From the IMG/VR virus record IMGVR_UViG_3300023109_000014, positions 1 to 64,000 of that record: 64,000 nucleotides of DNA. One strand, 5' to 3'. Source of the DNA: a virus. Below are positions 15,229 to 58,300 of the stretch, one piece after another. Every line of letters begins with the position of its first letter. The first letter of the stretch is position 1. The notes beneath the pieces are model-generated. The model had not been told where the DNA came from, searched no databases, and saw nothing but the letters and a program-made list of their open reading frames with translations. A program made the translations under genes and the position numbers.

Positions 15229-15300
15229 TTACCACTTGTATTTTTCCCAAGAGCAATATAAGTATAGTAGAGCTAGCACTCCAATAATAGCTAATGTCAT
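15229..15300 (-). CDS. 23-aa membrane peptide
   Basis: The ORF encodes MTLAIIGVLALLYLYCS and a short charged end, a single transmembrane helix. Its ATG overlaps the TGA of the pyrophosphatase gene in the ATGA manner, the best evidence for translation. Function unknown. Confidence 0.4.
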   Translation of the reverse strand: MTLAIIGVLALLYLYCSWEKYKW

Positions 15301-15803
15301 TTAACAATCCTTTCTTTAATAATTTGTTGGGCATATTCTTTACCATGCCAGCCTGAAAGTTCTACTCGGTTCCCAGAAGAAGATAAATCTTTATAATGTG
15401 CAAAAAAGTTTGTACAGATTTCAATAAAATGTTTATCTATACAAGACAGGTCTGAATATTTATCTTTGTAGAAATTCGGTACAGCAATTATTTTATAATC
15501 TTTTTCTCCATTGTCGTCCATGTCCAACACTCCCAAAACCTTAGCTTCAACGATTGTTCCCCTTTGAATAGGTTCTTTGTTAATAATTAATATATCTATT
15601 GGGTCTCCGTCTTCGCACATGGTCTGAGGGATGAATCCATAGTTAGCAGGATAAACCATTGAAGAGATTAAAGACCTGTCGAATATGAAACCCTGGAGGT
15701 CGGGGTCGTATTCATATTTATTTCGGTGACCTTCTTGTATTTCAATTATTGAATTAACTACAGATGGGCAGTGTTTATTTTGCGGGACATTATACAAATT
15801 CAT
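15297..15803 (-). CDS. ppa: inorganic pyrophosphatase, family I
   Basis: It hydrolyses pyrophosphate to two phosphates, pulling polymerase and sugar-nucleotide reactions forward. Family I signatures are intact: EIQEG..NKYEYD (Glu21, Lys29, Glu31), DGDPIDILI (65-73) and DMDDNGEKDYKIIAVP (94-109), followed by FFAHYKDL. The length of 168 aa is normal for bacterial enzymes. It is uncommon in phages. Here it lies divergent to a glycosyltransferase-like gene, so it may support DNA synthesis or a glycosylation pathway that releases pyrophosphate. Confidence 0.93.
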   Translation of the reverse strand: MNLYNVPQNKHCPSVVNSIIEIQEGHRNKYEYDPDLQGFIFDRSLISSMVYPANYGFIPQTMCEDGDPIDILIINKEPIQRGTIVEAKVLGVLDMDDNGEKDYKIIAVPNFYKDKYSDLSCIDKHFIEICTNFFAHYKDLSSSGNRVELSGWHGKEYAQQIIKERIVK

Positions 15804-25659: not shown

Positions 25660-25854
25660 ATGATTCAATTTTACAACGTTAGAAAAAAAGAAAAAGTGCA
25701 GATTGATCCATCTAAAGTAGAAAAAAAAGTTTATACTAGAACTACTAAAAATGGAAAGATTAGTGAACGTTATGCATTCGCAGCGGTGGATGAAGATGGA
25801 ACAAAAATGACTAAATTCTGCAGTAAAGCAGATTACGATAAATTAGAAAACTAA
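25660..25854 (+). CDS. hypothetical protein, 64 aa
   Basis: This is a basic small protein with strand-rich repeats (EKKVYTRTTKNGKISERYAFAAVDEDG) of unknown role, placed between portal and protease. Its TAA shares a base with the next ATG. The position suggests a head-assembly accessory such as a decoration or scaffold partner. Confidence 0.6.
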   Translation: MIQFYNVRKKEKVQIDPSKVEKKVYTRTTKNGKISERYAFAAVDEDGTKMTKFCSKADYDKLEN

Positions 25855-35382: not shown

Positions 35383-36252
35383 ATGGCCGTTACTGCAATT
35401 AACAAAGAATTATATTCCTTCTCCGTGTCTCTTGAGGTAAACTCTCAAAAAGAAGTTGAAGTCGAGAAAGAGGTTGAAATTGAAAAAGAAGTTGAAGTCG
35501 AAAGAAAAAGAAAAAACAAAGAAACTAAAAAAATGGAAACGGTTCTTGTTACAGAAACAAGAAAAGTTAAAGAGAAAAAAATCGTCAAAGAAATGCGAGA
35601 TGTTGTTGAAGAGCAGCCCGTCAGAATTATTTTAAGGAAACCTACTCGTACTCAATTAGAGGATGGAGATATGTTTTATAGTATTTGGCTAAACAAGTAC
35701 ATTAAGATGGGTTTGCTTACTAGAGCAATGCTAGCCAAGCAACATTTAGATGTTGGTGGGTCCTTGACGGAAGAAGAAAAACAAAGATATTCTCAGCTTT
35801 ACGTAAGACTTTACGAAAAGCAACAAGCTGTTCAAAGGTTTAGCTTAAAAACAGAAGAAGAAAGAACTAACGACGAATCAGAAAGATTAAAGGTCGCTGT
35901 AGAAGAATTAGGGATCATCAGGAAAGAATTGACCGATTTTGAAGCTGTGCAGGCCAGTATGTTTGATCATACCGCAGATATTAAAGCAAGAAATAAAACT
36001 ATTACTTGGTACCTATTAAGTCTTGCAAATGTTTCTTATGGAGATCAAGATAATTCAGAAGTTATTCCTTTGTTTCCTGGAGAAACTTACGATGATAAGT
36101 ATCAATCTTACCTAGAGCTTGACGAACAAAACGATGAAGTTTATTTGAGATCAATTGATAAAATTAGTTCTCTCGTCACAATTTGGTACATGAGTGGAGT
36201 CTCCAATCAAGAAGATTTTGATAGACTGTTAGAAGAGATTGACTCCGAATAA
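35383..36252 (+). CDS. putative tail assembly chaperone
   Basis: Residues about 22-75 are a Glu/Lys/Val repeat (VEVEKEVEIEKEVEVER) forming a charged beta or coiled segment. The rest is helical and acidic. It is one of two genes between the tail tube block and the tape measure gene, exactly where most tailed phages encode their two chaperones. No -1 frameshift site is evident and the second gene has its own start. The KEVEVE repeat is unusual. Confidence 0.5.
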   Translation: MAVTAINKELYSFSVSLEVNSQKEVEVEKEVEIEKEVEVERKRKNKETKKMETVLVTETRKVKEKKIVKEMRDVVEEQPVRIILRKPTRTQLEDGDMFYSIWLNKYIKMGLLTRAMLAKQHLDVGGSLTEEEKQRYSQLYVRLYEKQQAVQRFSLKTEEERTNDESERLKVAVEELGIIRKELTDFEAVQASMFDHTADIKARNKTITWYLLSLANVSYGDQDNSEVIPLFPGETYDDKYQSYLELDEQNDEVYLRSIDKISSLVTIWYMSGVSNQEDFDRLLEEIDSE

Positions 36253-36265
36253 CATGCCATGAAGC

Positions 36266-37342
36266 ATGGTCGAGAAACCTTCTAAAGAAAAAGAGCTTAG
36301 TCCAGACAAAATTGAAGAGCTGAATGAAATTCGGCTCCGAAAAGTACTTAGTGCCCTAATTCAAGGATCTTCTTTGATTAAAATATCTCCCAGTAAAGAT
36401 AGCGTTATGCATGACATTAGCAGGACAGAGATAAAGTGTTACGCTAAGCATTTCTCGCTTGCCGATCAAATTCATCTAGATCAGAAATATGAAGAGTTTT
36501 TTTCCAAAGCTCAGGCAGGAGAAATTCCTACTAAGCAAGAAGCCTTGCAAAGAATGTACGATAATGGGCTATGGACAGAGGAAAATGAAAAATGGGTCGC
36601 CGCTCAAAAAGAATTTATTAAAAATCTAGAACAAACAAAGTTAAAATTGACTATGTCTGCGCAGATTGCTAGCGTCCAAAAAAGCATTGATGGGGTTGAA
36701 GGTAAACTTAAAAAGCAGCAAGAAAAACGAGCAAAGCATATAGGAACTACTTGCGAGAGTTACGCAAACGTACAAATGAATTCTTATACAATGATTTATT
36801 GTTTGTTTTCAGATGCAGAATGTAGCGAGCCCTTATTCTCTAAAGAAGATCAGGATTATTTATCTCACGAAGATATTGGTTTGATAGTCATGTCTTACAA
36901 TCAAGGCATGAAAAATCTTGATATTAGCGCAGTTAAAGAGTTATCTGTTAGCCCTTTTTTTACTTCTTATTTTTCTTTAATTGAGGAGTCTCCCGCAGAT
37001 TTTTTCGGAAGGCCTGTGCATCAGTTGAGTTTTTACCAGTTAAATTTATTAAGCTACGCAAGAGTTTTGAGATCAATAATTAAAAATACAGCTCCTCCAA
37101 AACAATATCACAGAGACCCAGACAAACTATTTGAGTGGGCAGAAAAAGGAGATAAGGCTAGAAAGCTAATGGAAAAAGCTGGTAACGAAGACAAGGCCTT
37201 TTCAATGGTTGGCGCAAAAAAAGAAGATTATGAACAAGCGGGTGTCGAAAGGCAAGGTAAAGATATTTTTGATTTAGCTAAAAGCAAAAAAGGTAAAAAG
37301 TCAGGAACTTTATCAATTATGGATTTCTTGGATGAATCTTAG
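36266..37342 (+). CDS. second putative tail assembly chaperone
   Basis: This is a helical, charged protein with a Glu/Lys/Gln coiled coil around residues 110-160 (KLKLTMSAQIASVQKSIDGVEGKL in outline) and a Lys-rich end. It lies 13 nt after the previous gene and just before the tape measure gene. Chaperones of this kind hold the tape measure protein during tail assembly, a heavy task with a product this long. Assignment rests on position. Confidence 0.45.
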   Translation: MVEKPSKEKELSPDKIEELNEIRLRKVLSALIQGSSLIKISPSKDSVMHDISRTEIKCYAKHFSLADQIHLDQKYEEFFSKAQAGEIPTKQEALQRMYDNGLWTEENEKWVAAQKEFIKNLEQTKLKLTMSAQIASVQKSIDGVEGKLKKQQEKRAKHIGTTCESYANVQMNSYTMIYCLFSDAECSEPLFSKEDQDYLSHEDIGLIVMSYNQGMKNLDISAVKELSVSPFFTSYFSLIEESPADFFGRPVHQLSFYQLNLLSYARVLRSIIKNTAPPKQYHRDPDKLFEWAEKGDKARKLMEKAGNEDKAFSMVGAKKEDYEQAGVERQGKDIFDLAKSKKGKKSGTLSIMDFLDES

Positions 37343-37377: not shown

Positions 37378-40300
37378 ATGGCGCAAGAAAATATTAGAGT
37401 AAGAGTTAAGGCGATTGGGTTAGATCAAGACATCGCCAACCAAGCAAAAATAGGCGAAAAGAAAATAAAACCTATTAAGCTTTCTTTGAATGAAAAAGGG
37501 CTTGTGCAACCTCTCGGTAGAATTACTGGGCAAATGGGAGAATTCGAGAAATCGATGGATGCTGCGGTTGCTCGTGTATTCGCTTTTGGAGCTGCTGTTT
37601 CTGTTATAAATGGAGTATCTAGCGCATTAAAAGCTATGGCGCAATCTGCAATGGAAGTTCAAAAAGCTTTGAAGGATATCAATGTTATTATGAATATGTC
37701 AGAATCTGCTTTGCAAAATTTTGGCGGAGCTTTATTTGATGTTGCTAGAGATACTGCTTCATCATTTGATGATATTTCTGCAGCAGCAACTGAATTTGCC
37801 AGACAAGGCTTAAGCGCTGACGAAACACTGCAGAGAATTGCTGACGCTATGACCTTAACGAGATTGTCTGGCATGGACTCTGTAGAAGCTGTAAATGCTT
37901 TAACCGCTGCAATTAATGGTTTTAATGACGCAGCAATCAATTCCTCTGATATTGTGAATAGGCTAGCTAATGTTGATGCCGCATTCGCTGTATCTTCAAA
38001 AGATTTAGCTGATGGATTGGCGCGAGCAGGGGCAACTGCCCAAGCTGCAAAAGTAGAATTTAACGAGCTGCTTGCTGCAGTTACAAGCGTTCAACAGCAA
38101 ACCGCTAGAGGTGGCGCAGTGATTGGAAACTCTTTTAAAAGTATATTTACTAGGCTTCAGAGATCGAGCGTAAAAGAAGCTATGGAGGCTATAGGTGTCG
38201 CGACCCAGGATGCTTCTGGTTCATTTAGGTCTGGAATGGCAATCTTGCAAGATTATGCTAGAGGTTATGATAATTTATCTGACTCGCAAAAAGCTGCCAC
38301 TGACGAATTAGTTGCTGGGGTTTTTCAGGTTAATAATTTAAAAGCTTTGATTAAAGATTTAAATAGTGAGTTTAGTATATACGATCAAGCTTTAAAAACT
38401 GCAAACAGTAGTACAAACGAAGCCACTCAAAGAAATCAAGAATTGAACAAGACTATGTCGGCTTTGATGACTCAAACTGGTCTATCTATTAAAGAGCTTG
38501 CTGCAGGCCTTGGAGAAATGACCCTTGGGCCTGGGATCGAGAAAGTTCTCGAAACAGTAAAATCTTTATCTGACGGTTTAAATAACTTAATAGGTGAAGA
38601 TACTGGCTCAAGCATAGGTAAAACTCTTTTAAAAGGCATTGGTAGTTTTATTAGTGGTCCTGGGATGGTTTTAATTGGGGGTGCGTTTATTAAATTATTT
38701 GCGTTTGTCGCACAACAAGGTTCGAGTGCACTAAAATCAATCTTTTCCATCAATAGCGAAACTAAAAGACAAGAAGGTTTGCAGGCAGCAATTCTGCAAA
38801 TATTAATGAATGAAGAAAGTATTCGACAGAAAATCCTGGGTGGCGCCGCAAGTCAAGCGGCGAAAGAGCAAACGATTTTAAGCGTTTTAAAAAAGCAAAC
38901 CATGGAAAGGCAGGCGCAAGATGCGCTTTTAAAAAAAATCGCTGCGTCGTCTACATTAGCAAATGTCGCAATAAGTAATCAAGGAACCATTGTTCCGCAT
39001 GGTAGGGGTTCTAGAGCTGCCGCAGGCAGAAAAGATCTTGGAATGTCTAAGGGTTATGTTCCTCCAGCCACTAAAGATTCTAAATTTATTCCATCTTTCG
39101 AGGCTGAACAAAAAGATATAGAGAGAAGGGTTGGAGGCGCAACTAAATCAGCTTCTCCAGTTTTAATAAAAGGTTTTCAAAAAACTAAAACGCAAAAACA
39201 AGATGTCGTCGCTAATACGGACGAGGTTGTTGTTGAAAATTATATGGGTTCGGGCGCTTCCGCCATTTTAAACAAAAACATGGCTCAAAGGTTTAGTTTT
39301 GATAATGGGGTAGAGAAATATTACTCTGCTGCAGAATATGGTTCAAAAAATTTCTATTCGTCTGGCTATGTTCCTAATTTCAAAGCAACAAATAAGCAGG
39401 TAATTAAATTAAATGCAGCTGGACAAGGAATTATAACTGCAGAAGCTGGAAAGTCAGAAGTTGGTAAAAATCATACAGTTACTGCTTCTTCAGTTTTTGA
39501 TGGCCCAGTTCCTCCAGCATTTAAAGGTTCAAAATTTGAAGCAAGAAATTTTACAGTTGGAAGATTAGAACAATCTAAAGGAGGCTTTCATAGTATTGTA
39601 GATAAGCATATGACTACTGCATTAAGAGACGTTGCCCAAGATGTTGTTCCAGGTGGAAAGGTTAAAGGTTCTGGACCCCTGAGTGATTATTTAGATAAAT
39701 CTGCAGGACCTCAATTTACTGGAAGAATTTTTGAGGCAACCTTAAATTATATTAAAAATTCAGTAGTTAAAAATGATCCTGGAACAGCTGGCTGGGATTT
39801 TCCTGGAGGACAGTTTCAAAAAAATCTAACTACTGCATTTAATCTTGATTCAAGAAAAGGAAAAAATGTCGATGCAAAAGTGTCATCCAGCAAAAAAAAC
39901 ATAGGAAGCGGCATTAAGAAAATTATTGACTCTAGGGGTGGTTATAAAAATTTAAAGCAGTACAAAGATTTTGAAAAACAAAATAAAACTAAAAAAGCTT
40001 CTGCAGTTGGAAAACCAAGAGCTTCAAAAGGAATGATTCCATCAAATACCGCAAGTGTTCCGAATTTTGTATCCACTTGGGGTAAACCAGAATTGCTTAA
40101 AAAGATTAGAGAAAAGAATTTATCAAGAGCTCAAAAAGATATTAAAGGTTTTGACGGCATGAAGGCAACTAATGAATGGAGCGGTCAATTACCTATTATA
40201 CAAGTCGCCGATAAAAAAACTGGAACAACAACTAGATTTACTTATGGTAAGGGAGAGTATGATAACGAAAATAAGACTGACATTTTATATTCAGAAAGAG

Positions 40301-43300
40301 CTAAAGGGGTAGACGTAAACGATCCTTCTATGAAAGGTGGAGCTAATAGAAATTTTGATAAAATCGCAGAGTTTACAGGAAAAAGAAGTTGGAAAAATAA
40401 AGAGATTCATAGCACCTTTGACCAAATTCGAGCTTCTTCAGGCAAGACTCCTTGGGAAACCATAATCAATTCATTCCCGCAATTAAAACAAAGAGTTAAG
40501 CCAGGAATGTCAACCTCGGGAACTTTTCAAATTGGTACTGATGAAATCGAATATAGAAATATTAAATCTTTAAAAACTAAAGTTAATAAATGGGTTAAAG
40601 AAAATGGTATAGAGTCATTTAATAATTGGTCAGAAGCAAATTTAGGCTTTAATACAAAAAACTCAATTTTAAGCGGAACTGCATCTGGCGAATATTTTGC
40701 TATGGATGCATATACAAAAATATTAAAAAAAGGAGACAAGCATTTTAATCGAGATGAAAAAGCTGGCTTTTATTCTCAGGGAACTGTCCCTAATTTTATT
40801 ATTGATAAGAATACTGAAAGATCTATATTGCTTAAACAATGGCAGGGAAAACTTGATCAAGCCAGAACTCTCGCTAAATCAGGAAAACCCAGAGCTCAAA
40901 CAGACCCTCAAATTAGCCAACTGAATGGCGAAGCAAATGGAATATGGAGCCAGATTGTTAAAATGCAATCCCCTCAAAAGCCAAAAACCAAAAACGAAAA
41001 AAGCCACTCTGAAGGTTTGATCCCTAACTTCTCTAGTTATTTAGATGCTGGCAGCAATGTTGATAAAAGTTTTGGAGGAGGGATTGTTCCTAATTTTGTC
41101 AAGGTTGGCGAAACAAATCTAGAGAGAGACCGCCTTTTAAAGCAATGGCAAGGCAAACTTGCACAAGCAAAAACCTTATCTCAATCGGGTAAACCCAGAG
41201 CTCAAATAGATCCTCAAATTAGCCAGCTTAACGCAGAGGCAAATGGGGTATGGAGCCAAATCCAAAGTTTAAAAACTTCAAAAAAAGAAAAAACAGGAAA
41301 ATTAGGAAAAGGTTCTACGCTTAGAAGATCTGAGGGTCTTGTTCCCGCTTTGGCAAAAGGTGGAATACCAAACTTTAGCGAAGATAAGATGCGTGAAGAA
41401 ACGTTAAGTAGGACAATATCGAAAATGTCTGAAGGTTTAGTTCCCAACTTTGCTCTCAAAAGAAATGCTGGACTAAGAAAGTTTTACGATTTTGACGAAA
41501 CTTTAGGAACGTATTCTAAAAACGTTAAATCTAAGGATTTATTTCAAGCGGAGTCAGCAGGGCTTGCGAAACCAACCCCTCTCGCAAAAGAACTTGAGGG
41601 GCAAGCCGTAACTATTTTAACCGCAAGAGCAAAGCAGTCAACTCCATTTATTGAAGAAAAATTAAAGAAGTGGGGTATTAATCCTGAAAAGATTATGACT
41701 ACTGCGGATATGTTTAATAATCTTAAAATTGCTAATGACGGGTCTGGAAAAATTATTAAGGCTCAAGGAGGAAGAATCTCTGGTTATAGAAATTTAAAAC
41801 CTGCCGAGAAAAAAGCTATTCTTCTTGAAAGAATATGGAAAAAACAAGGAGGTCAATACGATTTAATTGATGATGCGATTGAAAACATCGAAGCAATTAA
41901 AAACTTAAGGAATGAAAATATAACTGGCACTCATTATCAATTTAGTGGTCAGCATTCTGGAAGAGGTAGTGGGAATGCCGAAGGTTTAGTTCCCAACTTT
42001 GTTCAATCAGAAAATACTCAAAAAGATCTTGTCCCCAATTTTGCTGCAAAAAGCATGCCTGTTCCTGGTTATTTAGAAAAAGTTTCCAGAGAAATTCAGT
42101 CTGCAGGGGGTAGTGCTCAAATTGTTGGTGGGGCTCCTAGAGATTTTTTAATGGGAAAATTTCCTAAAGATTGGGATGTAGAGGTTTTTGGTTTAGAACA
42201 AGAAAAGTTGCAAAAAATATTGTCTCCATCTTTAACTAAAGAAGGTTTAGTTGGTAAAGATTTTGGAGTATTCAAAGCTAAAAGTGGAGGTCAAGATTTT
42301 GAGTTCTCGATGCCAAGAAGAGAAAAGAAAGTGGGTGTTGGGCATAGAGGTTTTGAGGTTGAAGTAGATCCTAACATGGGGCGTAAAGAAGCTGCACAAA
42401 GAAGAGATTTAACAATCAATTCTATTTCTTACGACCCCCTTACAAAGAAATTTATTGACCCCTTGGGGGGGAGGAAGGATTTACAAGACGGCATCATGAA
42501 GCCTACGTCTCCCAGATTTAAAGAAGACCCTTTGAGAGTGTTAAGATCTATGCAGATGGCTGGAAGGTTTAATCTTTCTGCAGATAAAGAATTGGTCAAC
42601 TATTCTCGAGAAATGACTGGACAATTTAAAGACCTTCCGAAAGAAAGAGTGAGAGAAGAATGGATGAAATGGGCATCTAAATCTACCAATCCAGAAAAAG
42701 GTTTACAATTTTTAAAAGAGTCTGGGTGGATAAAACATTTTCCTGAAATTGATCAATTGCAGGGAGTTCCCCAGTCTCCCAAGCATCACCCTGAAGGAGA
42801 TGTGTTTAATCACACAAAGCTTGTGACGAATGCAATGGCGAATAATAAAAACTGGCAAATGCTTCCAGAGAAAGAGAGGGGTAAATTAATGTTTTCTGCT
42901 TTGACTCATGATTTTGGAAAAGTTACAAATACACAAATAAGTAAAGATGGCGCTATAACTTCTTATGGGCACGAGAAAGCTGGAGTAGCACCAATGAAAA
43001 GTTTCTTGGGTAGGATTATGTCTCAAGGAGAAGCGAGTAAATTATCTAAAGACTTAACGCCTTTTGTTGAAAGACATATGTTTCACTCAAATTTTCCTCA
43101 GAATTTGACGCAGAAATCTATTAATAGGTTGACTAAGGACGTAGGGGACCTAAGCAAGTTTCAAATATTGCTTGAATCTGACATGGGTAAAAATTTATCG
43201 GATGATGTAACTGCCAGAAAATTTACTCAGGTTGACGAAAAAAATATTAATAAGATGAGTTCAATCGCAAAAGAAAGTGGAATATATAAAGAGCCGCCTA

Positions 43301-46300
43301 AGCCGATTGTACAAGGTAGGGATTTGATGCAAGAAAAATTAATAGAACCTGGCCCTCAAATGGGTTCTGTATTAAAACATCTAGAAGAAGCTCAAATAAG
43401 TGGAGAGTTTAAAACTAAAAAAGGGGGAATTGAATATTTTAAAAATAACAAAGAAGATATATTAAAACGTATTAATAAATTTACCCCAAAAGGTAGAATG
43501 TTGAGAGGGAGAGCTAGCGGAGAAGTTCCAGAAAAAATAAATTATTCTCAAGGCTTGGTGCCTAATTTTGCTAGAATACCTTCTATGTTTAACGTTAAGC
43601 AAACTAAAACTGGCAAGGATTACGTAATGCAAAAAGATTTGGAACTTGCTAAGACGCAGTTTCCTGACGCAACTTTTAAACAATGGGGCAAGAATCCAAA
43701 GATGCATTTCATTTCTGGACATAAACCTCAAAATAAAATAACGAAGGACAAGGTATCCTTCGCGTCTAACGTAGACTTGCAGGAGTTCGGTAGCTTTGCC
43801 GCCCAAAAAGGATATCCAGAAGTAATGGGAGCGATTGTTAAGTCAACTCAAGTTAAACAGAATTCTTCAGGTAATAGAAATTATGATCGATTGACATCTT
43901 GGAAAAACAAAAAAGAAGAAGTTCCTAATCAAATAAATATTAAAGATGCCCAATCTCTCTCTACTGAAGACTACAAATCTTTTCCAATGGGTAAAGCTGG
44001 AGCAGATTTAAAAAGATTATATAATCCTGACAGTTTTGATAATGTATCTAATACAATTTTTACTTCTTCAGCACCTCAAAAAGCTCTTGCAAAATCCGCA
44101 GAGAAATTCACTACAAATAAGATAGAAAATTCTGAGGATATATTAAATTTTGTTAAGAAATCTCGTGGGTCAGAATCAATTTCAACCGAACAAATAAATA
44201 AATTATATCAAGAGTTTGCTGAAATGAAAGGTCTTGCAGTTATGTCTGATGGACATGTGCCTAATTTTGCTTCTCCTGCTTTTAATAAATTCATAAAAGA
44301 TAATATACATAATAAAAATTATAAAAATATTTCTGATAAAGTAACTAAATTGAATCTATCTGTTGGCAATGCGTATGGAGTTGGTGGTGATATTCCTCAA
44401 GATGTTAAAATTTTAAATCGTTTAACTTCTCAATTATCTAAAGTAACAAACCCGCTCATGGGTCCAACAGGCAAAGGTTCAAGGGATAGAGTATACGAAT
44501 CAAAAGAATTTGCGCAGAAATTTAACAAAACTGAGTATGACAAAATCTCAAAAGAAATTACAACATTGCAAAAAGAAAAGTTTCAATTAAGTCGCCCATC
44601 AAATCCAGACAAAAATCCAGACAGAGTTAAAAAAATTGAGTCTCAAATTTTAAAGAAAAAAGAGCAGGCAACTAATACGCAATTTTATAAAGCTAAATCT
44701 GAAGCGGTGAAGAAAGAAGATCAAGGAATAGAAAGGTTGTTTCAAGAAAAATTTACCGTCCAAAAAGATCAAATTGTTTCGCCTACAGGTAAAACTGTAT
44801 CAACTAAAGATTTAAATTCTATTGAAGAAGAGTTTAATGAATATATGTTTGCCAAGCAACAAAAAAGAACTAATACAAACGAAGAATTAGTCTTGCCCAA
44901 TTTTTCTGTTACTGCCCCAGAAACAGTCCCAAACTTTGTCAACGTAAAAGCAATGAGAGAGCTTGCAAAAAGAGGTGCAACTGAAGGAGAGAGAGCTGCC
45001 GCTCAAAACATGTTAGCAAAGCATGGGTTTAAGAGTAAAACAATCACATCTAGAAGTTGGCACGATAAAATATTTTTAGAAAATTATATTAAAAATAACG
45101 GTCCTAAGTCTGACCTTGAGATGTTAATTAAGAAAGGTTATGCTGAGAAAGAATTAGTTTCCCTAAAAAAACAATATCAAAATGACCCTCAATCTGTTAA
45201 AATTGCAAATCACGGTATTGTTCCAAGCTTCTCAAAACAAAAAGACCGAATAAGTGAAGCGGATTACGAAACCCAATTGTATAAAGAAAACTTTAAAGAC
45301 TCATCTCAAAAACAAAACGTCAACAATTTTAGCTTTGTCGATGACAGAACAACCTCTTCTTCAGGCTCTCAAAGTTTTGCAGAGGGTATGGTTTCTAAAG
45401 ACGTAAGCTCTAGCAGTTCTTCTGTAGACTCCAAAAGTTTTGCAAGTGGAACTGTTTCCAATATTTCTTCGCAAGAAACTGAAACTTTAGCAACTGGGTT
45501 TATTCCAAACTTTGGTATTCAATCTGACCGAATCAAGGAAGCGAGTCAAGCCTCTCAACTTTACGGACAAAATGTTGGGTATAAAGATACTCAAGTTAAA
45601 AAATTAGAAATTAACGGAAAGAAAGAGAGAGTTGTAGTAAACAATAAAGAAAAATTTTACTCTACTGGTTCAGAAGTTCAAAAAGCTTTTAGCCTCCCTT
45701 TTAAACCTAATGGAGGAATGGTTTTGCCTCCAAAAAATACTAAAGTCGGAAAAGAAAGAAGTAGAGAGTTTAGTAGTTTGGTTAATTCTTTTTCTAGCGG
45801 CGTAACTCCTACTGCCGATTCTTCTCCTCCTACTTTGGCTTATGGAGCTATGCCAAATTTCGCGGTATTCAGAAAATATTCTCCAAACACCTTAAGGAAA
45901 TCCAAGATTAAGGATTATTCTAACGAAGAGTTTTCTTCGATAAGTAGAGCTTTATCGGAATTTAACCTTATGTCTATGGGGTCTAGAGGAGGTTTGATGG
46001 GTCAAAAATTAAAGTCTGAGTCTCGAGCAGAAGGTTTATTTAAGACTAAGACGCAAGAGCAAAAAGATGATTTTAGACAATTTTTTAATTCAAGAGAGTT
46101 TAGAAGCTTAACAAAGAATGTTCAGGAAAAACTTAAAGTTGATTTTCCCGATTTATCCAGGGGTTACGGTTATAACGTTGACCCTTTTGCTGTGAGGCAA
46201 CTCGAGAATGTAAGCGCTGGAACAGTTCCAAATTATGCAAATTTAAGTTTATATAGAGGGCAAAAAAAATCAACTATAGATAAACCCAGCGTTGGTAAAA

Positions 46301-49300
46301 ATATGCCAAGCTTTGGCGGCGCACAAACTCCTCGAGACATTATTAATATAATTCAAAATTTTGTTAAGTCTCACGTCAGCGGCCCTCTCTCTGGAAGAAG
46401 AGATATTGGAGAGTTAGATAATGTTGCTCCGTCTGGCGCTACCTCATTTAGCACTTCAGAAACTGTCGCTAAGAAATTTGCTGGAGGAGGTTTAAATAAG
46501 CCTGCAAAAGATAATATACTTTCCACTCAGGTTCCAGAAAAAAATGTATTTAATAAAAAGAAAATTCTTAAATTATTAAATCGAGGAGCTAATCCAAAAA
46601 AAGGCCAATACCCAGAAGTAGAAAAATTTAAAAAAGCGATGGCTTCTGGACAAATTCAAAAATGGGCAGAGCAAGCTGGGGGACTTTTCTTGAATGTTTC
46701 TGGCAGAAGAAATGATAAGTCTCTTCAGAAATTTAATAAAACGGAATACGGTCGAAAAGAGTATGATTTTTATGATAGACCTATGAGTTCAATTGTGCCT
46801 GAGTCTGATATTGGTTGGAATCCTAGTGGAACTAAACAAATCAGTCCCCACGAGAATGAGGTTATGCAAATTTTTGACGAAGGAATTGTACCTAATTTTT
46901 CTGGAGCAGCTGGTTCTGCAGGCAGGCAAAAAAATAAAGCCTATCAGGACGACCCCGACAATATTATAGATTTAAGGCCGTTTACTACATTTGATTATTC
47001 TTTATTATTTCCCCAAAGAGGTGCTGGAAAATCTAAAGATGAAACATTAAGAGGGAGTGGGCCATATGCAAAAAAATATCAAAGTCAATTTCTTGTTGGT
47101 TGGAATGCAAAAGGAATAAATCCAAAAATCCCTAAAGAAGCTGATAAGATCGCAAAAATAGGAGACGCTGTAGAAAGAGATGTTAAAACTATAGTTAAAG
47201 CTCATTCTGAAAATTTCGTTAGAGCTTTTGGCGAAGAAAAGATTAGAATACAGGATTCGTCTGCAATTGATGGAGTTGTTCAAAAACATTTTAACGAAGG
47301 AACTTTAACGGCGATGGCTGGGAACGCTTTTGAGGCCGCTGCAAATACAGCTTTTAGCAACGTACCTGTAAACGCGGGAGGAGGAGATTTTGATGTTAGA
47401 GGCCCAACCGATCAGTTAAGGAGGTTTTTTAATTGGCCTTCTGCTCACGGATCCGTAGGAGATTTTAAGGCCAACTCTCAGTCGGGAGATATTAAAGCTA
47501 GCATGGCGGACAAGATATTAAAGGAGCTTGATTATAGAGGTTTATTATCTGGACAAGTTGCAAAAGAAAAAGCTGACTTTGATCAGTATGATAAAGATAA
47601 GGCGGCAAAAAACAAAGCAGCTACCATCTCTCGATTTAAAAATGTTCCTGGGTCAAATTCTTTAAGAGGAGGGATTACCCAAAAAGCTCCAAAAGGTTCA
47701 GCACCTTCGGAATCAAACCAGCAACATTCTAAAATCGTCGGCTCTAGTCGATCGGGTCAGGAACAAGAGGATTTCTACTTTTCTCAAGATAAAAACTTAT
47801 CTCTCGGTTGGGTTCCAAACTTTAAAATAAATCAAAATCTTGCGGGAGATTCTGTTCCAAGTTTTATTGATAAACCTAAGGAGCAGTTAAATAATTCGCT
47901 AAAAGTTAAAAGCGAAAAAGTTGACTTGCAAAAATCCCTTAAAGCAAAAAAAGGTACTTCTGTAGATTCTCAGAACGAGCTCAGAAGTCAAAATGTATCT
48001 AACGCTTCGGCGAAAAAGTTTGAGTCAATCATTAATAATCGATTTATTGATTCGCAGGAAAACAAAAAGTTTTCTTCTAGCTCTTTCGCAGATTCCGCTC
48101 AGTCTAAAAGTTTACAATTTTCTCGATCATCCAGCAACCTTTCTTCAGATTTTCTTAATACTCGATCTGAAAATAAAGTTTCGAAAGACGCTTCTGTGGA
48201 TTCGCAAACTTACTCGCAGGGCATGGTGTCGAAAGACGCTTCTGTGGATTCGCAAACTTACTCGCAGGGCATGGTGTCGAAAGATAACCAAGTGCCTTCT
48301 AAATCTTTAGAAGCCTCTAAATTTGATTTGACTACCATACATAGGCTGAGAGATAAATTTTTGTCAAGAGAGGAAGCTGTACAGAAAAATATTTCGCCTA
48401 GTGAGCGTAAGCTTGCGTTGCCTAAAGGTAAAAAGCAAGAAGGCAACTCTGAGTTAATCAATTCAATTTATTCTCACGGCAAAGATTTCTCTGCGGATAG
48501 GTTATCTAATGGTTACATTCCTAACTTTGCAATTAATGCAAATAATTATTCAAAGACTAATGATGCTTTAGGTTCCGCAATTAAAAGAGAAAATCAGGCG
48601 GGAATTCCAATGAATAAAATTAGAGTGGGTCAAAGCAATCGATTGAAAAATGAAAAAAATCCTGGAGGAGTTGGAGTGTTTAATACAATTGATGAACCAA
48701 GAGGTTTAAATCAAGGTATTAGTAGGTCTATATCTCAAGGAATCAATCCTCATAAACATGGCCTTGTTTCTTCTGGTTATGTCCCCCAACAAACAATTAA
48801 CGTTCCTAATTTTGTTGGAAGGTTTATTCCTAAAATGTTTAAAGGCGGAAGTAAGGGGGGTAAAGGTGTTGACGCTCCAATTCCAACTTCGGGTGGAGGT
48901 GGAGGCGGAATGTTAGGGGGTGGCGGAGGCTTAATGAATACTATATTTATGGGGCAAATGATGTTTGGAGGCATAGAAGGTAAAACTGGTACTGCAGGAG
49001 GATATGCGGCAGATGCTACTGGAGACGCTTTGCAGATTGCAGGAATAACATCAATGATCACAGATAAAAAGAAGTGGGTTGCTTTAGCTGCAACAGTTGG
49101 AGCTTTGAATGGAATGCTTGACCAATATTCAAAAAGCTTAAAAATGCAGGGAGAGCAAATCCAGAAGAATATTCAAATTAATGGAAAAGCTATTGAGAGC
49201 GCAACTCAAGTTGTTTCTGCCCAAACAAGACTTAATTCTGCAATAGAATCTGGCAACACAGACAATATATCTAAAGCTATTGAATCCCTCCAAAAAGAAA

Positions 49301-52300
49301 TAGAAAGGTTTCCAACAAATGGAAGCGACGCTATAATTAAACTTCGCAGCGACCTTGTTGGCGCTGGTGGAGATGTAGAGATTATGTCGAAAGCTTTAGA
49401 ATCATTTTCTCAATCTGCTCTTAAGGTTTCTAAATTAGGAGAACTAACAGTTAAAACTCAAGCTGTTAACGAAAATAGAGAAGGTTTAATTTTTGGAATG
49501 GGGCCTTCTCAACTGCCTGAATGGATGGGTGGAGCTAAAGGAGATTTAAAAGAAGAGGGTTCAAATGAAATTAGGCAAATAGGTAGAGAATCTGTGACTA
49601 ACTTAGCGCTTGCAGAAGATCAGGTTTCAGCATTTTCTTCTAAAATTTCAAAAATTGATTTTACAAAAATGTCTCCCGATGATATTAAGTCTACGATTAA
49701 AGAGTTTTCTAGAACTTTAGACGAAGAAACTAGAGTTTTGTTCGATCAGATTGTTGATAATGTTCCTGATGATGCTGTTGTCGATTTTACCATGGGTATT
49801 GGCGAGCAATTAAAGCTAAGAAAATCTTCCATAGAGGCTGGCAAGGCTGTTGGAAAAACATCTCAAGCTCTTGGTAATTTAAAAAGTACAATTGTAAATT
49901 TATCTACAGCTGTCAGCAGAAGTATATCAGAATTAAATTCTAATATTTCTAAAGCTTTTGATATTGCTGAAAACCAATTAAATTCTGAATTGAGTATTAT
50001 GACAGGGATGAATTATATTAGCCCTAAGGAAGCGAATGAAACTAAGGAACAGTTTGAGGTTACAAGAATCGAAAGTGAAGCTGCTGCAGGCACTGAATTT
50101 GAGGTATCTAAATTCGTATCTCAATTAATTAAAGATACGAAACTTGACGATGTAGAGGGTAAGGATGCATCTATTTTTTCTGGAAAACTTGGAAATATTC
50201 TTTCAAAAATGGGAGAGCGAGCAAATCCATTGCAAGACGAAGATCCGAGGTTTATGGCAAATGAAATAGTTTCTGCTATAAGTCAAATGGATCCAGCAGA
50301 CCGAACTCAAGGCGAACAAGAATTATTAGATGCAGTCAAGCAGATTGGGGACAAGGCCGCTTCTCAAATTACTTTATTAAAACAGGCTAACGAATTGGCT
50401 TCTAGACAGCAAACAATGCAGAGCAGAATGAACCTGCAAAATGCTCAAATCGATATGGAGAGAGACGGCGATACGCTATCTCAATTTTCATGGTCTCAAG
50501 GCTTAGAACCTAGAACTCAGCTAGATAAAGATATGCAGACTCGCTCTAGTATGGATATGATTGGTTTACTTGAGCCTTTATTTGGACCTAGTGAAGATCT
50601 GACTAAAATGAAGCAAGACGTAGGCGTTCAAAATGCAATTGGCAATGTACAAAGAATACTTCTTGGAATGGGTATTGAAAACGATGCTGGTTTTGATGCT
50701 GGCGCTAATGAAGATATTAGTATGCAAACAATGATTTCTGAAATGCAAAAAGTTTTAGCTCAAGGAGATTTAAATAAAGGGCAAGAAAAAATCGTAAACT
50801 ACATGGTTGGCCAATTAAAAAAGCAGGAGGCCGCTATTTCTGCAACCCCGCAAAATACAGAAGATCTAAAGAGACAGACTGTTCAGTCTACATCTGATGT
50901 TCTCGGTGTTGATTTAAGCGAAGTTGGTATTGATTTAGAGTCTTTGGATTTTAGTTCCCTCAATGCTATTGCTGATCAACTCGCAGAAGATGGCGTTGAG
51001 ATAAAATATTTATCAAGCATCGAAGAAAATACGAAAGTTATGGCTGCAAAATTAAATGATGCCCAAGGAATTACCAAGGAAGATATAATAAGCGCTATAC
51101 AGAACATACAAATTAAAGATGCTGAAAAAGTAGAGAAAAGAAAGGAAGCTGTTAAGCAAAAAGAAGACACTCGTAGTAAAATACAAGATATTGCTATATC
51201 TGGCGCCGATGTGAAAGTTGAAGGGGGTGCAGATATAAATGTAGGCGGTAGCACTACTATTAACGCTAACCCTCAAAGTTCTCAACCTCCTCAACCGCAA
51301 TTTAATCCATTTGTACCTAACTTTGCAAAAGATGAGTCCAGCAATAATAAACAATCTCCAATGCGAGGTTTTGTGAAATCCCTTAAAAGAGATAACAATA
51401 CTGAAAACAGGGGTTTTGAAAAGTTTGATGGAAAAACTTTTACTGGCGGTAAGGCATTGCAAGTGGCAAATTATTATCCTGGAGCTATCGACTCAATCTA
51501 TAGAGAAGTTGACGTTTTGGAAAATAGAGGTGTGCAGAATGCTATTAGCAAAATACAGTTAACTGTTCCATCTACATCTAACTCGACCACAAAATATCAA
51601 GGCCCAGTAGTTACAAATATGATGGACGAAGGAAGCGTTTCTGCCCAAAGCTATTTGAATAAAATTAACAACGTACATAATTTAAAACATTCTGATTCAA
51701 ATTTTAGTATTGCTGGCGCAGTTCCTAATTTTGCATCCTCTTCTCAGTCTCGCGGTTCAGTTAATGCTTCTGTGAGAAATGTTAATGCTAAATCAATTGC
51801 AAATAATATTTCAAGAATAAATCAAAAAAGTGATTGGAAGATGGCAAGAGGGGAAGAGAGCGCTGGAAAAACTTATTCTTCTGGAGCTGCATTAAGGGTT
51901 GCGAATTATTACCCAGAAACAAAAGAAATGTTAGACCAGGAAATTTCAATTCTTAAAAGTAGGGGTATAGATAGCCCATTAAGCCAAGTTCAGTTAACTG
52001 TTCCAGACGAAAACACTACAACTTTTCAAAATAAGAATACATTAGATCCTACAATATCGAATCGATTTGATGATGGTTCTGTATCAATATCAAATTATAC
52101 AAAAAAAATTAGGAACGCTCACAAGGTAGGGTTGCTGACTCCCCAGAAACCAGCAAGCGTCGGAGAGCATGCTCGTGAAAGGGCAAAAAATTTAGTTAAT
52201 AACGAACAAGCTTTAAGGAATCAGCTGCACGAAAACATTCTTAAGAAAAGAAAATCCGTTGTTCTCTCCGAGGAGTTAAAATCCAGAAATGAAAGTATAG

Positions 52301-55300
52301 ATGAGCCTGAGGCAAAAAAAATAAATATTACTGAGAAAGAGGGTTTGAAGTATGAAGGAGGAACATTTTCTGCGGGAGCTGCTTTGAGGGTTGCAAAATA
52401 TTATCCTGGAGCAACAGAATCTATATTTAGGGAAATTCGATCTTTGGAAGAAAAAGGCGTTTCAAGCCCTCTTGATCAAGTCCAGCTTACTATTCCAGAA
52501 AAAGGTTCGAAAGAATTTTCTTCTTATAACGGACCAGTGGTTACGAACAAAATTGATGAAGGAGGAGTAAGTTCTAAAAATTATCTTAATAAAATTAGAA
52601 GCGTTCATAAGGTAACTCCTAATGAAGGGCAATTTGCTTCTGTAGGAATGCCTAATATTGATGCGAAAAGTCAATATACTAGAGGGGCAATAAATAGCTT
52701 TTCTCAATTCGATTATGTTCCTAATTTTAGCAAAACAGAGGGTCGAGCAAAGGGAATTATTCGTTCTGCTAGAGAGCTAAGTATTGCTATGGAAAAAATG
52801 AATGAGCTTCCTGAAAATATTACCCCTTCTCAAATTGCGGAATTTAATCAAAAGGGGTCTGCCGTATTAGAAAATATTAATAGCTTAGGCAACCCAAACC
52901 AGCAAACTCTCACAAAAACACAAAAAGCTCTTGTTTCAAAAATGCAGGATCCAGAAGTTGTTAAAACTTTTCAGTCCATTGGGATAGATAACTTTAATTC
53001 TGATCTTGCTCAATTTGTTAACCCTGACAGTCTTGGAGAACCTCCTCAACCAGCTAGATTTAACCCTTTAGTTATTCAAAGTGCCGAAACAGGGCGGGCG
53101 GTTGAAAGCGGCACAAAGGTACTTCCGAGAGATATTAAGAGCGGTAAGTTTAACGTTGCGCAAGTTATGCTTAATGATGAAAATTTAGATGAATTTATTG
53201 AACCTTCAGAATCTAAAAATATTCAAGCAGTCGTTCAGTCTTCTCAAGACAGCGGGCAAAAGTTTAACGAAAATAAGAAAAAGTTACAAGAAAAGCGGCC
53301 AAATTATGCTAGTGGTAAGGGTACTCGCTATACTGATGAACCTACCGCTCCAAAAGCTGGAACACTAACTACCGCAAAGAAAGAAGGTTTTGTTGGTATA
53401 GAGTCTCACGGCCCTTCAAAAGCGCTCGCAACCCAAGTGAGAAACGAGGAAAACGCTTTAAAGAACACTACAAAAGAATTAGTTAAGGATGGTGAAGGAG
53501 GATTCATGAGAAATGCTTCCTCTTGGATTCGCAAAAAATTACAAACTATAAGGTTTCTTGATGGCAGCTCCAACGAGCAGAAACAAGGGATGTCTATAGA
53601 AAAAGAAAATGCTGTATTAAAGCAAATAGAAGATGATGGAATTGTTCGATACCCATCAGATGATAGCGCTTCCCCTTTAGAGAAATCGCCAGAATTTAAA
53701 CAACAAATTTCTGAAGTTTTAGACAATCAAGATTTGTCTTCTCAGGAAAGGGGTACGTCCCAAATTGAACAGCAAACAGAAACTTGGAGAAAAAGAGAGC
53801 ACTCTCTTACAGAAAAAATTCAGAGAGCTACAAAAGCAAGACAACTCAAAAGACAAAGAAGCAGGGCTCAAGAGCTAGGTTCTGCCGAACGACAAAGAAA
53901 AACAAATTTAGATGCCAAAAATAAAAGACAAGAAGCTAAAGAAAGAGAGAAGCGGAAGGTTCGAGAAATCCAAGAAAGGCAAATTGATGAAGGTTTAGGT
54001 CGACAGAAAATTGGCACCAATTCAGAAACTGGAAAAAGTATTTATCATTACGATAACCCTCAACTTAGAGAATTAAGCTCTTGGGATAAGTTGAAGCATC
54101 ACATGCTAAAATTTGTTGGGTTAGACGAGGGTTCGTATTACGAAGAGGTTGAACGTCAAAATAAGATCGTAAGAAACAAACAAATGCAGGATATTGCTAC
54201 TGGCGGAATTAATACTCAGCAATCTAAGTCTATGTCAACTCTTGAGAAGCTTAAATTAATGTCTGAACGCGATGTTCTAATTGAGTCTAGCGAGTTTGCA
54301 AAAGAAACAGACGGACAAAAAATATTAAGAGGAACTCCAGGCGAGCGAAGAAAATCTTCTTTGTTTGACATTCAACAAAAAGCAGGGGTCGGCGGAAAGC
54401 CTGCGGTTATTAATCTTGCGGGAGATATTTCTAGCCAAACGAATATCGCTGGCAGTTCATCTAAGTCTAGTAGTTTGACTCAATTATCTCAATCTAGAGC
54501 TGCCGAAGCTCAGCCCACGTTAATGGATAAGATAAGGAACGTTAAAAAACAACTGTCTGAAAAATTTGGAAAAGTAACATTAAGTCCAACAAGCTCGGCC
54601 TCTGTTCTGCAAGAGTATGATATTCTTGATTCTAGTGGAAGGGTCGTAGCTAAAATGGGTTCCAATGGTGAGGTGCTACCTTTTGAAGTTGATAATTCAC
54701 CTGTTATATATAACGCTCAGGGTCAAAAAATAGGAGCGGATAAAGTAATTCAAGTTCAGGAGAAACAGTTTGCGTTGCAAAGCTCTCCCATGAATGATGG
54801 CCAGTTATCTACAAGCGTTAATCAATCTGACGTGTTAGAACAAAAAGCTTTATTTGATATTGGTGAAAAAATTAAAAGCGGAGCGCCTATTTCTTCAGCG
54901 GAAACTAATTTAGTTCAAAATTGGGCAAATAAAAATTCAGAACTTGTCGGCTCGATTAATGCAGACGATGTAGATAACGCTCTTTTGTTAGAAAATAACG
55001 TTGTCGATAATAAGCAAATTAGAATTGGTAGGATGGGCGAGGAACTTTCAAATTTAACATCTGTTACGAATGCAGCAAATGCAGAAGCTCAGGTAGAGTC
55101 TTTAATTAAAGACCCTCAGTTCGTTGATAGCGCAACTAGGACAATGCCTGGAGATAACTTGCATTTGCAAAGAGTTTTTGATTCTATAGATGATAAAAAT
55201 AGGAAAACGAAAAGTACCCCAATCAAAACAGAGACTGCGTTGGATAGGGTTAAGAGCAATGCTAATATAAATCAAAGAGCAAATGCTTTAAGCAAAGAAA

Positions 55301-58300
55301 TGGTATCTAGAGATATAAGAAAAAATTCATCCCTAGAACTTCAGAAAAGATTAAGACTAAACAAAGGTTTTGATACAACCGAATTAAATACAAAGTTTTC
55401 CAACGAAAAATCCAGGCTTGAGGAGTTATTGAAAAATCCAAGTATTCCTTCTGATAAGAAAGTTGGCCTAAACGAAGATTTAAAAATATTGACAAGAAAT
55501 CGGAATGAGCATTTAAATACTCTTAGACCTGGTTTTATGGAGAGAAAGGAAATATTAATAAACGAACAGTTTAAAAATATTATGAGAGACACTGGTTTAA
55601 TGTCGTTGACTGGAGGTGGCGCAGACGGAGTTTCTTCTAACGATCCAGTTAATCAGTTTATGAAAGATAAGCTTGGGCCGAAAGTTTGGAACATGGATGG
55701 AAATTTTGTTAAAACTAAACAGCATTTGGCCAGCGCAATTTTTGGCGAAGAGCATAAATTTAATAAAGAGTTGACTGAGTCATTAGTTGATAGGCAGTTA
55801 AGATCGACAATATTAAATACAAAAAGTGAAACTTTTGGGTTGAGTGATCATATGCGTTCTAACCTTATAGACATGGATAAATTTGTAGGTATGGGTTTAG
55901 GCGATGAATTTTTGAACAGTGCAAAAAAACAAGGATTACATCAATCAGATATAGGCGTTTCTAAAATGGTGGACTTTATGGATCTTATGGATCCTGCTGG
56001 CAATAAAATTGACGGAGAGGGTAAACAAAAATTAAAAAAACAAGGCATTCAAAAGATATTTCAAAAAATCCAGAACGGAGAATTATTTTCTCAAACTGCG
56101 ATTAGAGGAAGAACAGTTCCTATAATACCTAAAGATGCAGAAACTGTCTTAAAGAACCTTTCTGGAGAAAGTACATCCGCACAAATAAACGCTGCGAGAT
56201 TAATTGAAAATGAACAGAAGATATCTTCTTTAGCTGCAGAAAAAGGAAGTGGCGTAATTAGCCAGTCAAATTTAAAAATCGCTGCAAGTGAATTAGAGGC
56301 GGGAGATATTAACGAAAATGGTATAGACTTTGACAAAGTTAGGATGAGCTCTGAAGAAATTTCAAACGTTCAATCTATGATGGATTCTATTGACGCAGAC
56401 CCCGATCAAAAAACAGATCAAAGAGTTTCTCAATTGTCTGAAGCTCTTGATCCACAATCAAGCAACGAATCTGTGCGAAGTTTATCTCAATTAAAATCTC
56501 TTGAATTAGAGGCTGACAGAGCTGCAGAAAAAGCAGAATTTAAAAAGTTATTAAGTTTGGGTAGCGGGGCTACTCCTGAAGATGTAGGTAGAATGTCTGA
56601 CCTGCTTCAGTTACATGACCAAAAAATAGAATTAGGTAGATCTTCTAATTTTGATTTAGAAGACGTAAATCAAGCGAGAACAACTATTAAAAATACCGCC
56701 AAGGAAAAAGTTGCAACAGCTAGCTCCACTATTGGTAAAGAACTTTCTCAAAAGAGTGAGCCTGGACAAGCACAAAAAAGAGCTATAGAGGAATTAGAAA
56801 AAATTGATCAAGCTGATCCTGTTGAGCAGGCTGAAGCTATACGTTCAACAAATCAAGAGGCAGAGGCAAAGGTTCGGTCAGCGAGTTTGGATCAGGGAGA
56901 AGATATAGTTCAACAAACAGTTGATCAGGTCGAAGATGTTGATGAAACATGGAAGGAAACTAAGGAGTCTCACATGTCTGATCCAGATAGAGCTGCTTCT
57001 GCTGGAAGACTGGAAGAATTGGGTGAAAAGTATCGAGCAATAATCCAATCCGCTACAGATAGTAAAGCATGGAGAACGACAAGGTCATTAACTAAAAATG
57101 TTCTAGGTGCTGGAATGGGACTTGTTCATCTTCCAGGAAAAGCTAAAGATTTAACAACTGAAGCTTATGGAAGCGTTAAGGAAAGAATTGATGCATTTAA
57201 AAAGGCTCAGGCAGAGAAATTTAATAAAAGAAAAGCAGAACAAATAAAGCATCCAGACGGAAAATCTTCAGGAAATTTTGAACAGCAAGAGAAAAGCAGA
57301 GTAATTGACGCTAAACTAGCTCAGCTGCCAAACACGAAAACAAGCAGAGGGGATTCAAGCTTGGACGATAGCCTTCAGAAAACAAAAAGATTTCATATTG
57401 ATGGAGAAAATATGACACCCTTTGAGCAAGATCTTCATGATAGAATGACTGGCAAAGTTAGAGTCAAGGATTCTGCAGGCAAAACAGTAGAAACTTTTTA
57501 CGATAAAAAAATTGCATCAGTGATTACAAACTCAGATGTTGGTAGAATTTCCAGGGTTGAGGATTCTATTACTGGTAGCTCTTATACTAATCGAGGTTTA
57601 AAGTTGAGAAATCTTCTTCCTGGAACTGCAAGTAGAAACATTGAGGGTCGATCTTTTATTCCTCCAGCTTTGCAGGAGATCGCATCGCTAGGTGGTCTTG
57701 ATGGTCAAGGTAGCAAATTAAAGCTTGATAAAGAAGGCCTTGCTCAAAGAGCTAAAAATATTGGCTCAGAAATATTTACTGGAAAACTTAGCTCTCCCGT
57801 TCAGAGCCTTTTTTCTACTAAAGAATTTCAGACTCAACTTGCGGAAACTAAATCTAGCGGAGCTCATGTAGCAATTCCTGAAGAATTTTCAAAAACCGTA
57901 AAATACGGAAAAAAGGGAGAAGCTAGTGTTTTAGATATAGATGGTGCTGCAGATGAACTTATAAAAGAAACAAGATTGATTGATCATGTTGGAGATGATG
58001 GCAAGCTAACTAGTTTTTCTTCAGATGAATTTCAAGCTTTCAGGGAATCAGAATTTCAAAAAATAGAACAAAGATTTGCGGGCGTTGATAATCCTGCAGA
58101 TCCAGTTCAGAACGAACAAAGAATAACTCAAATTAACGAACAAAAAGAAATGTTCGATAATAAAATTCTTGCCAATAATGCAGTTGATGAATCTGGCCAA
58201 GTTGTTGGTAGAAACACATTAACCTCAGAAGCCGCTCGAAAAAGAATTGCAAACATCCAAAAAATGTCGGTATCTGATGGTATGATTAGAAAGCAAAAGG

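What the first reader, a model, noticed from the sequence alone, without database searches (positions are those of the whole stretch)
39088..52728. PNF-motif zone looks like a modular cargo polyprotein
Twenty exact [VI]PNF motifs and several variants occur only in this zone and sit at the edges of independently foldable enzymes (HAD, CCA enzyme, ADP-ribosyltransferase, nucleases). The tape measure scaffold is clear before and after. The simplest reading is a string of cargo modules separated by a common short signal, either a flexible docking linker or a site for protease release. I do not know of a described system with this architecture, but I cannot search for one.
Basis: partly seen in the sequence, partly recalled or inferred. 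Interest (0 to 1): 0.97.

Follow-up and report, generated by a model that had tools for sequence, protein, structure and literature searches.

The report
Motif-punctuated enzyme cargo in phage tape-measure
The protein that sets this virus's tail length contains a string of swappable enzymes separated by a short repeated signal, and the same design occurs in scores of uncultured bacterial viruses, which suggests a general way of carrying enzymes into bacteria together with viral DNA.

Summary
The window lies in an 82-kb phage record and contains a 10,437-residue tape measure protein (TMP). It has 22 [VI]PN[FY] sites against 0.14 expected; all but one lie in residues 665-5114.

The motif is not private to this phage. 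Of 68 TMP relatives chosen without reference to it, 67 carry it (usually four copies), always C-terminal of the TMP core. Four related TMPs from isolated phages have none.

The consensus is A[AS]xG[FY][IV]PN[FY]A, held by protein-level, not DNA-level, selection. Homology between TMPs begins and ends at the motif far more often than chance, and the segments between motifs recur in different orders.

One module is a complete CCA-adding enzyme, also motif-bounded in another contig and free-standing elsewhere. HAD, ADP-ribosyltransferase and two nuclease assignments rest on sequence signatures.

Best reading: the TMP carries a cassette of exchangeable effector enzymes punctuated by a short linear motif. 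What the motif does is unresolved; docking or handling by a tail chaperone seems likelier than proteolytic release.

The nearest known things are polyvalent phage effectors and the TMP-fused RNA polymerase of phage P23-45. I found no description of this arrangement in the papers searched.

The parts
37378..64000 (+). Tape measure protein ORF, 10,437 aa; continues to record position 68691
   Evidence: PhageMin_Tail E=6e-29, PHROG tape measure E=2e-50
37378..39087 (+). N-terminal TMP scaffold with the core element TARGGAVIGNxxKSIFTR
39088..39099 (+). IPSF variant motif
39370..39381 (+). PNF motif, residue 665 (first canonical copy)
39382..40056 (+). Module: PD-(D/E)xK-like (GRIFE...DAK signature), function inferred
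   Evidence: conserved in two homologues
40057..40068 (+). PNF motif, residue 894
40069..40785 (+). Module of unknown function; resembles a recurrent module family seen in other PNF TMPs (FPQLKxR...TSG)
40786..40797 (+). PNF motif, residue 1137
40798..41019 (+). Small repeat module, copy 1 (LLKQWQGKL...)
41020..41031 (+). PNF motif, residue 1215
41086..41097 (+). PNF motif, residue 1237
41098..41364 (+). Small repeat module, copy 2
41365..41376 (+). PNF motif, residue 1330
41440..41451 (+). PNF motif, residue 1355
41452..41988 (+). Module: HAD-like phosphatase (DxDxT, T, K, D invariant in 7 modules)
   Evidence: no significant Pfam or PDB profile hit
41989..42042 (+). Double PNF motif, residues 1538 and 1552
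   Evidence: low pLDDT in model
42043..43557 (+). Module: CCA-adding tRNA nucleotidyltransferase with HD domain (enzyme proper 42121-43398)
   Evidence: PHROG 2244 E=9e-68, PolyA_pol E=2e-19, PDB profile E=8e-31, Foldseek E=7e-15, stand-alone homologue
43558..43569 (+). PNF motif, residue 2061
43570..44256 (+). Module of unknown function
44257..44268 (+). PNF motif, residue 2294
44269..44892 (+). Module of unknown function
44893..44937 (+). Double motif LPNF 2506 / VPNF 2517; homology to the G2 homologue resumes exactly at 2517
44938..45219 (+). Small module (MRELAKRG...)
45220..45231 (+). VPSF variant, residue 2615 (PNF in a homologue)
45502..45513 (+). PNF motif, residue 2709
45514..45849 (+). 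Entry-type module of about 100 aa
45850..45861 (+). MPNF motif, residue 2825
45862..46224 (+). Module of unknown function
46225..46236 (+). VPNY motif, residue 2950
46237..46887 (+). Module: ADP-ribosyltransferase-like (YRG...SFSTS), signature level only
   Evidence: no Pfam, PDB or phage hit
46888..46899 (+). PNF motif, residue 3171
46900..47811 (+). Module: PD-(D/E)xK-like nuclease (G-x-x-F-E...D...DxK), the commonest large cargo module of the family
   Evidence: fold not confirmed
47812..47865 (+). PNF 3479 and VPSF 3493
47866..48516 (+). Ser/Gln-rich low-confidence spacer with decayed motif copies
48517..48528 (+). PNF motif, residue 3714
48529..48801 (+). Exit module: conserved domain of about 60 aa that closes the cargo zone in most relatives
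48802..48813 (+). PNF motif, residue 3809
48814..51312 (+). TMP-like segment inside the reported zone, judged scaffold rather than cargo
51313..51324 (+). PNF motif, residue 4646
51325..52716 (+). Three tandem repeats of about 110 aa, with PNF at 51721 (residue 4782)
52717..52728 (+). Last clustered PNF motif, residue 5114
35383..36252 (+). Gene upstream of the TMP, present in 73 of 78 relatives; candidate tail chaperone or motif reader (inference)
36266..37342 (+). Gene directly upstream of the TMP, present in 72 of 78 relatives; candidate tail chaperone or motif reader (inference)

Best explanation
The tape measure protein of this phage family carries, between its N-terminal core and its C-terminal scaffold, a cassette of exchangeable effector domains. 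The domains are punctuated by a short linear motif, A[AS]xG[FY][IV]PN[FY]A. Shown here: the motif is selected at protein level, is restricted to the part of the TMP after the core element, bounds units that are gained, lost and reordered, and bounds at least one complete enzyme that also exists as a stand-alone phage gene. Inferred: the cassette is in the tail and enters the cell with the DNA, where the enzymes act early, for example CCA-adding and HAD domains repairing tRNA cut or blocked by host defences. Also inferred: the motif is a handling site in the linkers, bound by a TMP chaperone or the tail tube (about 0.5 of the probability), rather than a protease site (about 0.25) or a passive spacer (about 0.2).
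For: Motif excess 22 against 0.14. 67 of 68 TMP relatives picked without the motif have it; 0 of 404 copies lie before the TMP core. Four related isolate TMPs have none. Homology-block ends, with motifs masked, fall within 10 aa of a motif in both proteins 1358 times against 14.7 expected; shifted controls give 27-300, except 60-aa shifts (633-652), which equal the exit-module length. In the G2 homologue, W 835-2516 is replaced by other modules and alignment restarts at the motif. 532 modules form 167 clusters with many neighbour contexts. The CCA module is a full enzyme, motif-bounded in contig L144 and free-standing in L145. Motif codons: 22 synonymous against 4 nonsynonymous differences; flanks 202 against 214. 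Codon choice at the motif is ordinary. An unrelated HAD profile and nuclease profile align only over the 13-residue motif.
Against: No direct evidence that the region is in virions or is injected. Most modules lack a recognised fold; ART and nuclease calls are signature-level. A folded 50-kDa enzyme should not fit a tail lumen of about 4 nm (general knowledge), so it would have to be unfolded or sit elsewhere. Low model confidence at motifs also reflects shallow alignments.
Confidence: 0.72

Rival explanations
1. PNF is a processing site: a phage or host protease cuts at the motif after assembly or after injection and frees the enzymes one by one.
For: The motif lies at both ends of each module, in predicted unstructured linkers, and is strongly conserved at protein level. 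A zincin-like sequence is itself a cargo module in some relatives. Metallopeptidase processing is the proposal made for polyvalent proteins (PMC5512222).
Against: Tandem motif pairs 11-22 residues apart and motifs flanking a 60-aa module would release small peptides of no obvious use. No protease gene was shown to track the motif across relatives. Cutting at every site would sever the N-terminal TMP core from the scaffold.
Confidence: 0.22
2. PNF is only a convenient linker or turn sequence that marks where recombination is tolerated; it has no binding partner.
For: Exchange boundaries coincide with it. Flanking sequence is variable and low-complexity in places.
Against: Codons at the motif vary freely while the residues do not (22 synonymous, 4 nonsynonymous), so a specific peptide is kept, and it is kept at junctions that differ in everything else. 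Generic linkers are not usually held to a 10-residue consensus.
Confidence: 0.15
3. The motif is a DNA-level recombination or regulatory repeat that happens to be translated.
For: It is repeated and coincides with module borders.
Against: Codon usage at the motif equals the gene background and differs from copy to copy; synonymous differences are common.
Confidence: 0.03
4. The PNF region is an oversized part of the ruler itself: structural repeats of the tape measure with degenerate enzyme relics.
For: It lies within the TMP frame; part of the reported zone (48814-51312) is scaffold-like and the 51325-52716 repeats look structural.
Against: Catalytic motifs of the CCA enzyme and HAD are intact. 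In 38 complete relatives the motif-bounded span varies far more (CV 0.78) than the rest (CV 0.28).
Confidence: 0.1

Closest known systems
Polyvalent proteins of phages and conjugative elements (Iyer et al. 2017, PMC5512222)
   Same: Many unrelated effector domains (metallopeptidase, ADP-ribosyltransferase, nuclease-type) in one polypeptide inferred to be delivered with DNA.
   Different: Those reported are tied to head, portal, MuF or virion RNA polymerase contexts; the paper does not mention tape measure proteins (0 occurrences). Here the carrier is the TMP and a short conserved motif separates the units.
P23-45 tape measure fused to virion RNA polymerase (PMC10770324)
   Same: An enzyme domain built into a giant TMP (5,002 aa) and acting early in infection.
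   Different: One N-terminal RNA polymerase; no punctuating motif found in the passages read. Here there are many small exchangeable modules after the core, in a TMP twice as long.
SPbeta/Slashvirus/Audreyjarvisvirus tape measure proteins
   Same: Share the TMP core detected by Pfam PhageMin_Tail and tblastn.
   Different: No PNF motifs in four tested.
Sle1-type contractile-injection-system effectors related to TMPs (PMC13277306)
   Same: TMP-related protein with exchangeable functional domains, packaged in a tail-like particle.
   Different: Bacterial contractile nanoparticle with a variable functional domain, not a phage TMP with a motif-separated array.

Membership tests
Phage tail tape measure protein | TMP core domain at the expected locus, after tail tube and chaperone genes | tested here: met
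   PhageMin_Tail E=6e-29, PHROG TMP families to E=2e-50; syntenic tail genes in 66-73 of 78 relatives
Phage tail tape measure protein | Length sets tail length | not testable with these tools
   No virion image; uncultured phage
Polyvalent proteins | Several unrelated effector domains in one polypeptide of a mobile element | tested here: met
   CCA enzyme proven; HAD signature complete; ART and nuclease signatures
Polyvalent proteins | Delivered into the host with DNA | not testable with these tools
   Inferred from location in the TMP only
Polyvalent proteins | Processing metallopeptidase or other peptidase domain in the same protein | tested here: inconclusive
   No zincin identified in the window protein; zincin-like sequences are modules in relatives L025, L067 and L094, without a Pfam peptidase hit
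CCA-adding tRNA nucleotidyltransferase | Nucleotidyltransferase head with DxD and RRD motifs, plus neck, body and HD | tested here: met
   DWDVEVFG, RRDLTIN and HD motifs present; E=9e-68 over 378 of 392 profile positions; 46 Foldseek matches at E<=0.001, all of CCA-adding or related tRNA-processing enzymes
HAD phosphatase | DxDx[TV], T, K and D motifs | tested here: met
   All invariant across 7 modules; no profile hit, so fold unproven
PD-(D/E)xK nuclease | E...D...(D/E)xK in a characteristic fold | tested here: inconclusive
   Signature conserved; fold search negative
ADP-ribosyltransferase (R-S-E) | R, STS and ExE motifs in ART fold | tested here: inconclusive
   YRG and SFSTS seen; no profile or structure hit

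The most novel reading that the evidence does not exclude
A dedicated cargo system: the PNF peptide is a docking code read by conserved tail chaperones (the two genes upstream of the TMP), which load any PNF-flanked enzyme into the tail for injection, so that new effectors are acquired simply by landing between two motifs.
Probability: 0.3. Interest if true: 0.95.

Novelty: new variant of a known kind. Interest (0 to 1): 0.88.

Why it matters
It would identify tape measure proteins as a common carrier for injected effectors in uncultured phages and give a simple sequence signature to find many unrecognised anti-host enzymes. If the motif is a docking code, it would make protein delivery through a phage tail directly testable.

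Tried and rejected
DNA-level repeat: rejected by codon usage and synonymous changes. CCA hits in MT835871, MT836608 and LR756501: no PNF array there. Weak S-CAM7 match to the pre-motif region: no motif within the fetched S-CAM7 stretch, treated as chance. No phage in the INPHARED set matched the HAD module or the ART module, and the motif-rich exit region of a relative gave only chance-level matches. Fold of the nuclease module: model too weak, no PDB match. Profile searches of the HAD and nuclease modules against PDB: nothing significant. Literature for the motif string or 'PNF motif' with tape measure: nothing relevant. Bacterial genomes: nine relatives, from Halobacteriovorax, Flavobacteriales, Verrucomicrobiales and Proteobacteria assemblies; the motif array is present in several.
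Full report
What is there. The window is the first 64 kb of an 82,461-bp viral record. From window 37378 one open frame runs to record position 68691 and encodes 10,437 aa. Its N-terminus is a tape measure protein (PhageMin_Tail E=6e-29; PHROG families to E=2e-50). For comparison, the P23-45 TMP, called giant by its authors, has 5,002 residues (PMC10770324).

The motif is real. 20 [VI]PNF and 2 [VI]PNY sites are present where composition predicts 0.14 [VI]PN[FY]. All but one are in residues 665-5114. Several decayed copies (SKGYVPP, SEGLVPA, SQGMVSK) sit in the same zone. Codon usage at the motif is ordinary and copies use different codons. Between the window and its near homologue G3, PN[FY] positions are 94% identical with 22 synonymous and 4 nonsynonymous codon differences, against 69% identity and 202/214 in flanks. 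The peptide is selected, not the DNA.

It is a family trait. Two homologues have open frames of 10,562 aa (G3) and 8,166 aa (G2) and carry the same kind of array. A DNA pattern for GF[VI]PNFA in viral contigs gave 111 in-frame ORFs, 91 with at least two motifs; the consensus is A[AS]xG[FY][IV]PN[FY]A with no conservation beyond about 10 residues (this set was selected by the motif, which biases the consensus). A set chosen by the TMP core element instead gave 68 TMPs with more than 900 aa downstream, of which 67 have the motif and 65 have at least two; none of 404 copies precedes the core. Four related TMPs of isolated phages have none.

It bounds modules. With motifs masked, 1358 of 4585 internal homology-block ends lie within 10 aa of a motif in both proteins (14.7 expected). 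Shifted controls give 27 to 300, with a secondary rise (633-652) at 60 aa that equals the exit-module length. The pairs are not independent, so the ratio is an indication, not a probability. In G2 the stretch corresponding to W 835-2516 holds different content and alignment restarts at the motif, W 2517 = G2 1206. Across 169 non-redundant TMPs, 532 modules fall in 167 clusters, 103 of them singletons; common modules appear in up to 36 neighbour contexts. The profiles of a HAD module family and a nuclease-like family share only the 13-residue motif.

The modules include enzymes. The CCA-adding enzyme is proven by profile (E=9e-68), PDB sequence profile (E=8e-31) and fold (E=7e-15). The same module lies between two motifs in contig L144, and a 463-aa stand-alone relative in L145 matches it nearly end to end. 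The HAD module keeps all HAD motifs in seven representatives but has no significant profile hit. ART and PD-(D/E)xK assignments rest on signatures; structure search did not confirm the nuclease. Relatives carry a Staphylococcal-nuclease domain, a GHKL-ATPase-like module (just below Pfam cut-off), and P-loop-like, zincin-like, kinase-like and GNAT-like modules, mostly at signature level.

Predicted structures of two window stretches put every motif in segments of pLDDT below 50, outside the CCA core (mostly 70-93), the nuclease-like domain and the 60-aa exit domain. Shallow alignments limit this test.

Mechanism. Best reading: a cassette of injected effectors inside the TMP, punctuated by a handling motif. 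Gain, loss and reshuffling of modules are shown. Presence in the tail, injection and early action are inferred from the carrier and from the P23-45 precedent. Because a folded 50-kDa enzyme should not fit a tail lumen (general knowledge), I think the cassette is threaded unfolded and the motif is a grip for a chaperone; the two genes upstream of the TMP, conserved in 73 and 72 of 78 relatives, are candidates. Tandem motif pairs and motif-bounded 60-aa units speak against cleavage at every copy but do not exclude it. In 38 complete relatives the motif-bounded span varies much more (CV 0.78) than the rest of the TMP (CV 0.28), as expected if cargo is not the ruler.

Novelty. Polyvalent proteins are the nearest known kind; the papers on them that I read describe head-, portal- and MuF-linked carriers, and the founding paper does not mention tape measure proteins. 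Searches of the held open-access papers found no PNF motif. Subscription papers could not be searched, so prior description cannot be excluded. I file it as a new variant of a known kind.

Noticed in passing
G000:C1:81157-82461: Collagen-like ORF of GTDGTH/GTP repeats on the minus strand at the record end
   Followed up: no
window 14462-14848: Small heat-shock (Hsp20)-like ORF on the minus strand
   Followed up: no
window 15297-15803: ORF resembling inorganic pyrophosphatase, with a chance VPNF
   Followed up: no
window 25854-27401: ORF resembling a prohead protease joined to a scaffold region; a possible protease for the cleavage rival
   Followed up: no
L051:5015-6784: A PNF-bounded module joining a GHKL/HSP90-like ATPase to a zincin-like HEAAH sequence (read in its relative L067)
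   Followed up: partly
L226, L227, L228, L230, L232: The TMP family occurs in Halobacteriovorax, Flavobacteriales and Verrucomicrobiales genome bins, hinting at hosts
   Followed up: partly
window 48529-48801 and relatives: The 60-aa exit module is very common at the end of the cargo zone and no relative of known function was found
   Followed up: partly
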